From NCBI RefSeq assembly GCF_014652535.1, contig NZ_BMYZ01000002.1, forward strand, positions 620,001-684,000: 64,000 nt of DNA. The letters are read 5' to 3'. Every line of letters begins with the position of its first letter. The stretch's first letter is position 1. Below, one piece after another: positions 8,008-11,202 of the stretch. The stretch is from Cellvibrio zantedeschiae. Lineage in GTDB: Bacteria; Pseudomonadota; Gammaproteobacteria; Pseudomonadales; Cellvibrionaceae. The notes under the pieces were generated by a model. That model saw only the letters and a program-made list of their open reading frames with translations. It did no database searches and was not told the origin of the DNA. Both the position numbers and the translations under genes were made by a program.

Positions 8008-8026
8008 TAAAATTACTTCCCATAAT

Positions 8027-8060
8027 AAAAAAAGCCCACCTATTTACGTGGGCTTTTTTT
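8027..8060. terminator. Bidirectional intrinsic terminator
   Basis: An A7-GCCCAC arm (8027-8039) pairs with GTGGGC-T7 (8048-8060) around an 8-base loop. It lies between the convergent ydbT-like gene (+) and the PEP-CTERM gene (-) and can serve both. Confidence 0.92.
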
Positions 8061-8075
8061 ATTTCCGATGAGCGC

Positions 8076-8678
8076 TTATTTGTCTGATGGTTTAACTCGC
8101 GCTAATCCCAAGGCAATCAAGCCAATTAACATCAGCATATTGGTTGCCGGTTCTGGAACTGAAGCCGCTTTTACAGTTACGCGTGCATCGGTTGTTGAGG
8201 TAAGTGCAAGGTTATTGCCGTAAGCATCACCTAAAGCATTAGCATCAAGATGAAACACACCTGTACCCGGCGCAATGCTGGAAAATACCAAGCTAAATAA
8301 AATAAAACTATTTGCTTGTAAGTTTTCCAGGCTCCATACGTCATCAAAAGATAATTCGAATAAATTTATCCAGCCGGAATTGCTGCTATCGCTTATCTGC
8401 AGGCTACCAAAATGATTTAAATCCAGTTGGTTGCCTTTAACACTGTCGCCCCAGTTAATGCTATTAAAAGCAAAGCGGCTGCTATCGAAATTGACATTCA
8501 CATCATAAACTCCCAGCGATGTTGCACCTGAAGTCTTGAGTCCAGAAATTTTTGCGTCAATTTGTACTGTGTTGCCAGCGCTTATTTGTGAGGCGGCAGG
8601 TACCAAGTCAATCGTCAATGCATGTGAGTTGAGCGAAAAGCTCAGCCCCAATGCGAATATAAATAAAAACTTTTTCAT
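8076..8678 (-). CDS. PEP-CTERM protein with a cohesin-like body
   Basis: The 200-residue exported protein has a signal peptide (residues 1-20, ending NSHA), a beta-rich body and a C-terminal PEP-CTERM sorting signal: VPEPAT, a hydrophobic stretch, then a basic end (RVKPSDK). Exosortase-type enzymes recognise such tails and anchor or process proteins at the surface in EPS-producing Gram-negatives. The body has the pattern of the cohesin fold (ISAGNTVQIDAKISG, then GVYDVNVNFDSSRFAF, later APGTGVFHLDA). AAGGAG precedes the ATG and overlaps the stop of the upstream nuclease gene, so the two are translated from one message. The PEP-CTERM call is firm; cohesin is inferred from pattern, not alignment. 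Confidence 0.85.
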   Translation of the reverse strand: MKKFLFIFALGLSFSLNSHALTIDLVPAASQISAGNTVQIDAKISGLKTSGATSLGVYDVNVNFDSSRFAFNSINWGDSVKGNQLDLNHFGSLQISDSSNSGWINLFELSFDDVWSLENLQANSFILFSLVFSSIAPGTGVFHLDANALGDAYGNNLALTSTTDARVTVKAASVPEPATNMLMLIGLIALGLARVKPSDK

Positions 8679-8688
8679 TCTAAACTCC

Positions 8689-11202
8689 TTATTTGGTTGC
8701 GCAGGCAGTGCGAGTGCATTGCAAGGTTAGTGCGCGGGCATCGTTAGCGTTGATGATTCCATCGCCGTTTACATCGCGTTGATCCAATGGTGATGCAGTA
8801 GTATTCAGTGCATTTGTGACAATTTTGATATCGTCGCTGTCAACATCGCCGTCACCGTCCAGATCAATAATTAATTTCAGCGAAATCACTAAAGGATCGT
8901 GGTCGGATGAACGATAAGCATCGTTAGCATAGAAACTGTTGATCTGCGCCGCTGATTTAAATTCAGTGTTGTAATCAAGGCTAATGGGTTCATCGGCGTT
9001 AATATGCCAATCCGCCGCTTCCAATACTTGCGCGGTAAGTGATTTGGTGGCGAGGCCATGATCGAGATAGCCTGCTTGCCCATCAAACACATAAGAGTAC
9101 GCGTTAGCGCTGCCGAATTTGTTAATTAAATCTGTGTAGCCTGCGTTAATAATTTTGGTAATCGGTTCCTCTTTTGCGTAAGAGTTGAGGTCACCGATGA
9201 TCAGGAAATCACCATCGTTAACACCAGTGGGTTTGCGTGAAAGCCAATTCACCAGGGCTTGTGCTGCATTAGTGCGGGTGATGTTGCAATTGCCTTGGCC
9301 ATCGCCGGTATCCAAATCACCAAGGTCATTACAATCTGAACCTTTTGATTTCAAATGGTTGATCGCAATAGTAATTACGCCGCGACCTTGGGTTGCGCGG
9401 AAACTTTGCGCAAGTGTTGGGCGATTTTTATTGTCGATAAATAATGGTTCTACAGACGAATCTAAAATTGCAGTTTGTCCAATTGCTGTCGCGCGATCTT
9501 TGCGATAAATAATGCCAACGGCAATTTCGTCTGTACCCACTTTGCTCAAACCCGGATTAATGTAAGTCCATTGATTAGTGCTTGTTGCAGTGTTGAGTGC
9601 AGCGGTTAATTCAGCGATGGCAGAATAAGTATCGTAACCATCGTTTTCCAATTCCAGTAAACCAATAACGTCAGCATTTAATCCCACTAATGCGTTAACA
9701 ATCTTTGCTTTTTGGCGAGCAAATTCTGTCGCTGTGTTTGCACCGCGTGCTGTTGGGAAACCACCACCAAGGCCGTTGCCATTAAAGAAATTAAGCACGT
9801 TAAAGCTGGCCACTTTTAAATTTGCATTTGCAGCCATTTTTGGCGCAGTTGGGCGTGCGTTAGTTTTTACAAAATTGGGTGTGACTGTGGGGAGCAAACG
9901 ATAGGCACCGAAATCATAAGTCATAACTCCTGTTAAGCCGGTTACTGTATCGCCGCTGCGCAATGGATTAGCTGCAGATAAACCAGGAGCAGGGAATATA
10001 ACGGGATCAGGATTTTGCAAATTACTGCTGTCATCCAACATTAATTTATTTAAATTATTTTGTGTTTGTTGCGCAATAGCTGCAGCGCCTGGGCTCACTA
10101 GATTCGTTGGTTGTGACAAGCGACCATCGGCCAACAATACTTGTCCGTAGCGACCAAGGCCGTAGGTTTCGTTTACGGTTAAGGTTTGCGGTGCGGTGAC
10201 CAGCATGCCTTCTACCGCTTCAAAATCAGTAAGCGTAGCTAAAGGCAGGGCAATACCTGTAACAATGGGTAAGGTTTGATTGCTGGCGCAAACGCTAACA
10301 CTCGTCGGAGTAATTTGGGTCAGGTTAAATGTTTCTGCCACGCTGCCACTTACGCGTACTTTATCTCCTACGGATACTGGCGTGGTGCTTGTTACGTAAA
10401 TGCCTTCCGATGTTGCGGGATTATTGTCGTCAAGATTGTCTGGCTCTTGTAAAAAAAATCCACCGATTTGACCGCTGCCTTGAAAACTCGCTACAACAAT
10501 AGCTTCAACACTAACACCGCTACCTACTAATGGGCTTGCACTGCCGCTGCCCTGAATGGCAGAAATTAATGTGCTGGCTGCGCCGCAACTGCTGGATTGA
10601 TTGCCGCCGTTTCCATTTCCATTACCGTTGTTGCTGCTGCCTTGATAAGTGCCCAGATTATCGAAAGTATCTGTTGCAAAACCATCCCACTCAACACTTG
10701 GATCAAAGGCCAAATTGGCAGATGTTTTTCCACTAGTGACAGAAGCTTTACGGCGCAAAGTATTATCTGCAGTGCTGGTTAATCCAGTGCCCCATTCAAT
10801 ACCTGGGTCTACACCTACTTGGCCAATGGAGTCGATAATTATGGAGCCATTTTTTAATAGGATTGCATCGTCACCGTTGTACCAACCTGCGGCGTTGGTT
10901 TGATTGGCACTCGTTATAATTGTGCCAGTGGCGCTGGCGTGCGCGAGTACGAATGTGCCTTGCGCAGGCACAGATCCGCTTAAATTAATCGTTAAGCCAG
11001 CACTGTTGCTGCCGTTGAAATACATTTCTACTTTGTAACCGCTGAGATTCACAGGGCTATTGCTACTGTTATAAATTTCCAGCGCTTTGTTGTTACTTGA
11101 GCCTTCAACATATTCAGAAAAATACAGATCTGCAGATGCACCAACACTGGTGGCGAGGCAGGCGAGTGCTAGCGCTGATTTTTTAAAGCCTAAAAATTCC
11201 AT
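8689..11202 (-). CDS. ExeM/NucH-type extracellular nuclease with C-terminal dockerin-like module
   Basis: The 837-residue secreted protein starts with a signal peptide (cleavage near SVGASA). A lamin-tail-like domain follows (LYFSEYVEGSSNNKALEIYN), then a short N/G-rich linker and an OB-fold-like region (about 205-330). The endonuclease/exonuclease/phosphatase domain carries SFNVLNFF, ELENDGYD, NHLKSKG, GDLNSY and a terminal SDHDP, the metal and catalytic motifs of ExeM/NucH nucleases that degrade extracellular DNA. The last 60 residues contain two calcium-loop repeats (DLDGDGDVDSDD and DVNGDGIINAND), the pattern of a type I dockerin. GGGAGA precedes the ATG. It is first in a two-gene operon with the cohesin-like PEP-CTERM gene, suggesting surface tethering. 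Confidence 0.9.
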   Translation of the reverse strand: MEFLGFKKSALALACLATSVGASADLYFSEYVEGSSNNKALEIYNSSNSPVNLSGYKVEMYFNGSNSAGLTINLSGSVPAQGTFVLAHASATGTIITSANQTNAAGWYNGDDAILLKNGSIIIDSIGQVGVDPGIEWGTGLTSTADNTLRRKASVTSGKTSANLAFDPSVEWDGFATDTFDNLGTYQGSSNNGNGNGNGGNQSSSCGAASTLISAIQGSGSASPLVGSGVSVEAIVVASFQGSGQIGGFFLQEPDNLDDNNPATSEGIYVTSTTPVSVGDKVRVSGSVAETFNLTQITPTSVSVCASNQTLPIVTGIALPLATLTDFEAVEGMLVTAPQTLTVNETYGLGRYGQVLLADGRLSQPTNLVSPGAAAIAQQTQNNLNKLMLDDSSNLQNPDPVIFPAPGLSAANPLRSGDTVTGLTGVMTYDFGAYRLLPTVTPNFVKTNARPTAPKMAANANLKVASFNVLNFFNGNGLGGGFPTARGANTATEFARQKAKIVNALVGLNADVIGLLELENDGYDTYSAIAELTAALNTATSTNQWTYINPGLSKVGTDEIAVGIIYRKDRATAIGQTAILDSSVEPLFIDNKNRPTLAQSFRATQGRGVITIAINHLKSKGSDCNDLGDLDTGDGQGNCNITRTNAAQALVNWLSRKPTGVNDGDFLIIGDLNSYAKEEPITKIINAGYTDLINKFGSANAYSYVFDGQAGYLDHGLATKSLTAQVLEAADWHINADEPISLDYNTEFKSAAQINSFYANDAYRSSDHDPLVISLKLIIDLDGDGDVDSDDIKIVTNALNTTASPLDQRDVNGDGIINANDARALTLQCTRTACATK

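What the first reader, a model, noticed from the sequence alone, without database searches (positions are those of the whole stretch)
8076..11202. A dockerin-tagged secreted nuclease and a cohesin-like PEP-CTERM protein form a two-gene operon
The nuclease ends with two calcium-loop repeats (DLDGDGDVDSDD, DVNGDGIINAND), the pattern of a type I dockerin. The next gene, ten bases downstream, encodes a secreted protein with a PEP-CTERM anchor and a body with the cohesin-like sequence pattern. A cohesin-dockerin pair would tether an extracellular DNase to the cell surface via exosortase. That would be a minimal non-cellulosomal tethering module for eDNA use or biofilm control. The dockerin and PEP-CTERM calls are clear from sequence; the cohesin call and the interaction are inference.
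Basis: partly seen in the sequence, partly recalled or inferred. Interest (0 to 1): 0.72.

Follow-up and report, generated by a model that had tools for sequence, protein, structure and literature searches.

The report
Exosortase-tagged cohesin paired with dockerin nuclease
A Cellvibrio-like bacterium appears to hold a secreted DNA-cutting enzyme at its surface with a plug and socket (dockerin and cohesin) whose socket carries an exosortase sorting tag, and similar two-gene pairs with other cargo proteins were found in related bacteria.

Summary
One gene encodes an ExeM/NucH DNase with a C-terminal type I dockerin. The gene 10 bp downstream encodes a signal peptide, a divergent cohesin-fold domain and a PEP-CTERM tail. 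The cohesin call rests on an AlphaFold model matching PDB cohesins; by sequence the protein is below the Pfam cut-off.

The genome has one exosortase and a second pair, a GH16/CBM protein with dockerin beside a cohesin PEP-CTERM paralogue. In 369 class genomes the two profiles hit 14 and 15, sharing 13; in 200 phylum genomes they hit the same 6. The genes lie close together, in either order, and cargo varies.

Most likely the cohesin protein is a dedicated exosortase-processed socket for its neighbour. Binding is untested; a joined-chain model was uninformative. Ten library searches found no paper joining PEP-CTERM with dockerin, though key reviews were not held. I rate it a new variant of a known kind.

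The parts
8689..11202 (-). Secreted ExeM/NucH-family endonuclease with C-terminal type I dockerin (837 aa)
   Evidence: LTD 64.5 bits, NF033681 647 bits, Dockerin_1 28.0 bits
11131..11202 (-). N-terminal signal peptide of the nuclease (about aa 1-24, read by eye)
   Evidence: sequence
10816..11139 (-). Lamin tail domain (aa 22-129)
   Evidence: PF00932 E 1.3e-17
8872..10509 (-). ExeM/NucH nuclease region including the EEP catalytic domain (aa 232-777)
   Evidence: NF033681 E 2.4e-194
8728..8865 (-). Type I dockerin, two calcium-loop repeats (aa 780-825)
   Evidence: PF00404 28.0 bits over cut-off 22.9
8692..8718 (-). C-terminal tail CTRTACATK with a C-x4-C motif, seen in 17 of the 19 dockerins listed (the window's own is not among those 19)
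8679..8688 (-). 10-base intergenic gap; AGGAG (8685-8689) overlaps the nuclease stop codon, so translational coupling is plausible
   Evidence: sequence
8076..8678 (-). Secreted cohesin-fold PEP-CTERM protein (200 aa)
8619..8678 (-). Signal peptide (about aa 1-20, read by eye; Ala20 invariant)
   Evidence: sequence
8169..8618 (-). Cohesin-fold domain (about aa 21-170)
   Evidence: AlphaFold model; Foldseek PDB; PF00963 sub-threshold
8082..8159 (-). PEP-CTERM sorting tail: VPEP, hydrophobic helix, basic end (aa 174-199)
8024..8063 (-). Terminator-like hairpin with T tract just after the cohesin gene
   Evidence: -21.8 kcal/mol, z -7.48; not listed by the consensus scan

Best explanation
The two genes encode a cognate plug and socket. 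Both proteins leave the cytoplasm by signal peptides. The small protein's cohesin-fold domain binds the dockerin at the end of its neighbour, the DNase, in a calcium-dependent way (the dockerin has two calcium loops). The PEP-CTERM tail of the small protein is processed by the genome's exosortase, so the complex is held at the cell surface or in the exopolysaccharide layer instead of being lost. The DNase has no membrane tail of its own, unlike ExeM of Shewanella, so its anchor is supplied in trans by the next gene. Shown here: domain content, cohesin fold by prediction, exosortase gene in the genome, recurrent nearness of the two modules with changing cargo. Inferred: binding, calcium dependence, processing, final location, and use of the DNase on extracellular DNA.
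For: Domains. Cohesin fold: AlphaFold model of the window protein (mean pLDDT 73.5, pTM 0.65, 12 rows); in Foldseek against the PDB 45 of the 50 printed rows, and all of the first 26, name a cohesin, best 6kgd_A E 8.3e-9; the A. fulgidus non-cellulosomal cohesin 2xdh is rank 6. A relative beside a dockerin protein passes the Pfam cohesin cut-off (L075, 27.3 against 24.1). Exosortase: PF09721 E 3e-37, one match, TIGR02602 110.2 bits over 105.55; 21 PEP-CTERM matches over the cut-off, including both cohesin proteins. Second pair in the own genome, 30 bp apart, on a protein with GH16, CBM6 and CBM56. Class survey: dockerin tail 14 of 369 genomes, cohesin protein 15 of 369, both 13 (Fisher p 4.8e-21). 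Phylum survey: 6 of 200 and 6 of 200, the same genomes. Of 31 regions mapped, 25 gave 26 dockerin-cohesin rows, all on one strand, 25 of 26 with gaps of at most 212 bp and one of 793 bp. Both orders occur and cargo varies. In the genus, 15 of 15 ExeM orthologues read with the C-x4-C dockerin tail have the cohesin gene beside them. Exosortase: 11 of 13 pair genomes against 116 of 356 others in the class; 18 of 20 cohesin genomes against 57 of 100 others in the family. Dockerin and cohesin distance matrices correlate (25 pairs r 0.71; 20 pairs r 0.42, p 0.0016).
Against: No binding was shown. The joined dockerin-cohesin chain model gave the dockerin block pLDDT of 37-65 and pTM 0.52, so it says nothing on the interface. 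The window cohesin fails the Pfam cohesin cut-off, and five of ten relatives show no Pfam cohesin match at E 0.1. Dockerin_1 over the cut-off also ends ExeM orthologues with no cohesin neighbour seen (L107, L110). Cohesin-type proteins without a detected dockerin exist (G245, G256; a second, tail-only match in G442). Two of 13 pair genomes in the class (G316, G405) and two of 20 in the family (G105, G107, both under 80% complete) show no exosortase. In the PDB the dockerin profile scores calmodulin-like EF-hand proteins above dockerins. The correlation of distance matrices, and the Fisher tests, are confounded by shared descent.
Confidence: 0.77

Rival explanations
1. The proteins bind, but the complex is not held at the surface: the cohesin protein is a secretion or folding partner, or the complex is released into the medium or loose exopolysaccharide after exosortase cleavage.
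For: What exosortase does to its substrates is proposed from sequence and genome context in PMC1569441 (passages read). Several cohesin proteins have non-canonical tails (L075, L078, L083), and two of 13 pair genomes in the class lack a detected exosortase.
Against: By eye most of the 25 tails printed keep a Pro-containing motif, a hydrophobic stretch and basic residues, and exosortase is enriched in pair genomes.
Confidence: 0.13
2. The calcium repeats are only a stabilising C-terminal cap of the nuclease and the adjacent PEP-CTERM protein is an independent surface protein.
For: ExeM orthologues in other Cellvibrionaceae carry dockerin-like tails without a cohesin neighbour seen.
Against: A C-x4-C dockerin is found beside a cohesin-type gene on nine different cargo types: ExeM, GH16/CBM, IgGFc-binding-like, RHS/teneurin-like, Ig-repeat, subtilase, GDSL lipase, M9 collagenase-like and PKD-repeat, in L072, L073 and L077 near the N-terminus of the cargo; the two profiles co-occur in 13 of 16 and 6 of 6 genomes with either.
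Confidence: 0.07
3. The dockerin binds a different cohesin and the neighbour binds a different dockerin (shared, not dedicated, pairing).
For: The own genome has two pairs, so crossed binding is possible.
Against: Only two such dockerins and two such cohesins were found in the own genome, each next to the other.
Confidence: 0.1

Closest known systems
Cellulosomal type I cohesin-dockerin and its cell-surface anchoring scaffoldins (OlpA/SdbA, R. flavefaciens ScaE; their biology recalled)
   Same: Dockerin on an enzyme, cohesin on an anchored protein; the predicted fold matches 3ul4 (OlpA, rank 9) and 2zf9 (ScaE, ranks 46-47) among others.
   Different: Single cohesin, no multi-cohesin scaffoldin found, PEP-CTERM instead of SLH or LPXTG anchor, Gram-negative hosts, cargo mostly not cellulases, extra C-x4-C tail on the dockerin.
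Non-cellulosomal cohesin and dockerin of Archaeoglobus fulgidus and ANME archaea
   Same: Non-cellulosomal cohesin and dockerin proteins; 2xdh is Foldseek rank 6; role described as unknown or unclear in PMC5244752 and PMC9012536 (passages read).
   Different: Archaeal; the passages read describe no exosortase-tagged cohesin protein with a dedicated neighbouring dockerin cargo. Neither paper was read whole.
ExeM of Shewanella oneidensis (GlyGly-CTERM/rhombosortase)
   Same: Same nuclease family (NF033681 647 bits), LTD plus EEP domains.
   Different: Shewanella ExeM has its own C-terminal membrane anchor and was found with the inner membrane (PMC6085458, passages read); here the tail is a dockerin and the anchor is on another protein.
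PEP-CTERM/exosortase system
   Same: Signal peptide plus PEP-CTERM substrate and an exosortase with Cys, Arg and His motifs.
   Different: The substrate is a binding module that would carry another protein; the words dockerin and cohesin do not occur in the main text of PMC1569441 (find).

Membership tests
Type I dockerin (PF00404) | Two calcium-loop repeats scoring over the curated cut-off | tested here: met
   28.0 bits against 22.9, aa 780-825
Cohesin (PF00963) | Sequence score over the curated cut-off | tested here: not met
   Window protein 18.9 against 24.1. Of 11 relatives scanned (10, L085) one passes (L075, 27.3), five match below the cut-off and five show no match
Cohesin fold | Cohesin jelly-roll by structure | tested here: met
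   Foldseek best 6kgd_A E 8.3e-9, TM by target 0.69; 45 of 50 printed rows name a cohesin, on a model of mean pLDDT 73.5. The diverse profile also finds PDB cohesins by sequence, best E 0.0023
Cohesin-dockerin pair | Direct binding, calcium-dependent | not testable with these tools
   Joined-chain model inconclusive
PEP-CTERM protein | Signal peptide and C-terminal PEP motif, hydrophobic helix, basic end | tested here: met
   TIGR02595 16.3 against 16, 20.2 in the genome scan; but PF07589 17.4 below 20.7
Exosortase system | Exosortase gene in the same genome | tested here: met
   PF09721 E 3e-37; TIGR02602 over cut-off, XrtA model 138 below its 208
ExeM/NucH DNase | NF033681 over cut-off | tested here: met
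   647.2 against 300
ExeM GlyGly-CTERM form | NF033680 over cut-off and GlyGly-CTERM tail | tested here: not met
   399.5 against 1300; the tail is a dockerin
Cellulosome | Scaffoldin with several cohesins plus dockerin cellulases | tested here: not met
   No Pfam cohesin match at E 0.001 in the genome; two single-cohesin proteins found with the session queries

The most novel reading that the evidence does not exclude
A widespread Gram-negative surface-display system: a one-cohesin, exosortase-processed socket protein encoded beside a dockerin-tagged cargo, with the cargo freely exchanged (DNase, glucanase, collagenase-like, subtilase, lipase, IgGFc-binding-like, RHS/teneurin-like) and a distinct dockerin class marked by a C-x4-C tail that may lock or specify the pairing.
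Probability: 0.62. Interest if true: 0.78.

Novelty: new variant of a known kind. Interest (0 to 1): 0.68.

Why it matters
Cohesin and dockerin domains outside cellulosomes are described as of unknown function (PMC5244752, passage read), and what exosortase substrates do is largely open. A dedicated, neighbouring, cargo-swapping pair ties both questions to a short experiment: bind, delete, fractionate. It could also give a new orthogonal cohesin-dockerin toolbox for displaying enzymes on Gram-negative cells.

Tried and rejected
Sequence search of the PDB with the single cohesin protein found nothing meaningful; the fold and profile searches did. Pfam cohesin over the own genome found no match at E 0.001, so session profiles were needed. 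The joined-chain model was meant to show an interface and did not. The consensus scan found fewer promoter-like sites than shuffles (4, mean 6.4) and somewhat more terminator-like sites (8, mean 4.6), and did not list the hairpin after the cohesin gene. The idea that every dockerin-like ExeM tail comes with a cohesin was rejected: among the 15 other ExeM loci read (L107-L121), five tails match the dockerin profile at E 0.01 and L111 resembles one by eye, others are PKD-like by eye or short, and no cohesin match was seen downstream, though L108 ends soon after the gene. The idea that the pair is only local synteny was rejected because the neighbours printed differ between families while the pair stays. 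G025 (E 7e-4), L028 and L088 look like PEP-CTERM-tail similarity only; G025 was dropped from the count of 20 cohesin genomes in the family. Alignment A7 left out L083 and L084, which lack the C-x4-C tail, and L062, a near copy of L063.
Full report
WHAT IS IN THE WINDOW. Two minus-strand genes lie 10 bases apart: 8689-11202 (837 aa) and 8076-8678 (200 aa). A Shine-Dalgarno-like AGGAG overlaps the stop of the first, and a strong terminator-like hairpin follows the second (-21.8 kcal/mol, z -7.48, 0 of 200 shuffles as good), so a two-gene transcription unit is likely (inference). The first protein is a lamin-tail plus ExeM/NucH DNase (NF033681 647 bits, cut-off 300) ending in a type I dockerin (28.0 bits, cut-off 22.9) and a short tail CTRTACATK. 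The second has a signal peptide by eye, a body with a weak Pfam cohesin match (18.9 bits, cut-off 24.1) and a PEP-CTERM tail (TIGR02595 16.3 against 16; PF07589 17.4 below 20.7).

THE COHESIN CALL. AlphaFold on the window protein with 11 relatives from named records gave mean pLDDT 73.5 and pTM 0.65. In Foldseek against the PDB, 150 matches had E at most 0.001; 50 rows were printed. All of the first 26 and 45 of the 50 name a cohesin; four more are scaffoldin-complex entries (4fl4, 3kcp) and one, rank 30, is a CLIPPER adhesin domain. The best is 6kgd_A (E 8.3e-9, TM by target 0.69). A profile of 17 diverse members also finds PDB cohesins by sequence, best E 0.0023, with two non-cohesins (9ncf, 1qge) among its 17 weak matches, and one diverse member, beside a dockerin protein, passes the Pfam cut-off (L075, 27.3). 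I therefore call it a divergent cohesin-fold protein, while the window protein itself fails the Pfam cut-off.

THE EXOSORTASE. The genome has one exosortase match (PF09721 E 3e-37; TIGR02602 110.2 bits over 105.55) with GCSGLRY, NWLRI and HE motifs in that order (that Cys, Arg and His are the proposed catalytic residues is from PMC1569441, passages read). It has 21 PEP-CTERM matches over the cut-off in six frames, including both cohesin proteins.

A SECOND PAIR IN THE SAME GENOME. The own-genome search for dockerins gave three matches, one over the cut-off (the window's); the second-best (15.7 bits) lies just upstream of a paralogue of the cohesin protein, the genes 30 bp apart. Its carrier has GH16, CBM6 and CBM56 and ends CTKLSCAR. 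The third match (C4:29 kb, 14.6 bits) was not found by either dockerin profile.

FAMILY SURVEY. The cohesin protein matched 21 of 120 genomes of the family. One match (G025, E 7e-4) is not accepted, leaving 20. In the 22 cohesin loci read, the upstream neighbour ends in a dockerin: 21 seen, and the last (L011) through the same contig held as L067. In three genomes of another genus the neighbour is IgGFc-binding-like (Pfam on L090 and L091; the third, L022, judged by its near-identical tail). ExeM-type nuclease matched 63 of 120 genomes, of which 30 loci were given. Of the 30 tails read, 15 are C-x4-C dockerins, each with the cohesin gene beside it. The other 15 have other tails: five match the dockerin profile at E 0.01, and the two tested pass PF00404 (L107, L110), yet no cohesin match was seen downstream (L108 ends soon after the gene). 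So a dockerin domain alone does not predict the cohesin neighbour; the C-x4-C form does in this sample.

CLASS AND PHYLUM SURVEYS. With profiles built only from the family, the dockerin tail matched 14 of 369 class genomes and the cohesin protein 15 of 369; 13 have both (Fisher p 4.8e-21; genomes are not independent by descent). The one dockerin-only genome, G467, has a cohesin-type gene next to the dockerin below the threshold used (E 5e-9; 3.5e-7). Cohesin-only: G245 and G256. With broader profiles, 6 of 200 phylum-level genomes matched the dockerin and 6 of 200 the cohesin: the same six, two of them new (G546, G596), with two pairs each in G000 and G596; the other four were also in the class sample. 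G442 has a further weak match to the cohesin profile's tail end (7.8e-7). Of 31 regions mapped, 25 gave 26 dockerin-cohesin rows, all on one strand, 25 with gaps of at most 212 bp (some negative through start-codon choice) and one of 793 bp; both gene orders occur. The six regions without a row are L070 (nuclease frame broken in the assembly; the same contig shows the dockerin before the cohesin, L013), L076 (pair present but masked by my gene picking; seen), L085 and L086 (no dockerin found), L088 (the exosortase region) and L089 (the weak third dockerin match).

CARGO. Dockerin carriers outside the genus include IgGFc-binding-like, RHS/teneurin-like, Ig-repeat, subtilase and Endonuclease I fused to ExeM; RHS/PASTA, GDSL lipase, NHL and GSDH-like; further ExeM nucleases in G467 and G596; an M9 collagenase-like and a PKD-repeat protein. 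Four carriers (L074, L075, L078, L080) gave no family over its cut-off. In L072, L073 (second protein) and L077 the dockerin is near the N-terminus. The constant parts are dockerin, cohesin and, in most, a sorting tail.

THE C-x4-C TAIL. Both cysteines are invariant in the 17 rows of A7. Of 19 dockerins listed, 17 have the motif; L083 and L084 lack it and were not put in A7. Against the PDB, calcium-binding EF-hand proteins score best; three dockerin chains were recognised among the 60 rows shown of 218, and they align only to about position 48 of 63, so the tail is extra to those solved dockerins. A disulphide or specificity role is a guess.

EXOSORTASE CO-OCCURRENCE. In the class, exosortase is in 127 of 369 genomes, in 11 of 13 genomes with both parts and 13 of 16 with either (p 2.3e-4 and 1.2e-4). 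In the family, 75 of 120 genomes and 18 of 20 cohesin genomes (p 0.0037); the two misses, G105 and G107, are under 80% complete. G316 is 99% complete and lacks a match; its cohesin tail is also non-canonical, perhaps a plain membrane anchor (guess). Genus members without the cohesin also have an exosortase (G051, G079, G091, G093).

INTERACTION. Distance matrices of the two modules correlate (25 pairs r 0.71, 0 of 20,000 permutations; 20 pairs r 0.42, p 0.0016), but shared descent alone can do this. A single-chain model joining dockerin and cohesin of a close relative gave the cohesin part again but a dockerin of block pLDDT 37-65, pTM 0.52: inconclusive. Binding is inferred from family knowledge and recurrence.

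MECHANISM. ExeM of Shewanella has its own C-terminal membrane anchor with a proposed rhombosortase site and was found with the inner membrane (PMC6085458, passages read). Here that tail is replaced by a dockerin, and the anchor sits on the neighbouring protein. The simplest account is surface or matrix retention in trans through a dedicated cohesin socket sorted by exosortase.

LITERATURE. Ten searches of the open-access library were run. No paper holds PEP-CTERM with dockerin or with cohesin and dockerin. The one paper holding exosortase and dockerin concerns methanotrophic archaea and treats them in separate passages. Listings of 47, 13 and 28 papers on cohesin and dockerin (the first and last shown only in part) were, apart from PMC5244752 and PMC9012536, not opened. 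Peer et al. 2009 and Haft et al. 2012 are not held, so prior mention cannot be excluded.

NAMES.

Noticed in passing
L107, L108, L109, L110, L111, L113 (3' ends of the nuclease ORFs): ExeM orthologues in other Cellvibrionaceae carry dockerin-like calcium repeats followed by another short tail, often basic or Trp-rich, with no cohesin neighbour seen; the partner, if any, is unknown.
   Followed up: partly
L073:5617-12993, L077:1-5538: Very large RHS/teneurin-like proteins with a C-x4-C dockerin near the N-terminus next to the cohesin gene; in L073 one cohesin gene is flanked by two dockerin proteins.
   Followed up: partly
L086:6576-7634: Two cohesin-profile matches in tandem genes (E 1e-9 and 7e-5) in G256, with no dockerin match at E 1e-6 in that genome.
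   Followed up: no
L085:6512-7159: A cohesin-type PEP-CTERM gene in G245 (98% complete) with no dockerin match at E 1e-6 and no exosortase match.
   Followed up: no
L128/L136 (G596): M9 collagenase-like protein with a C-x4-C dockerin (PF00404 20.1 bits, below cut-off) beside a cohesin-type gene.
   Followed up: partly
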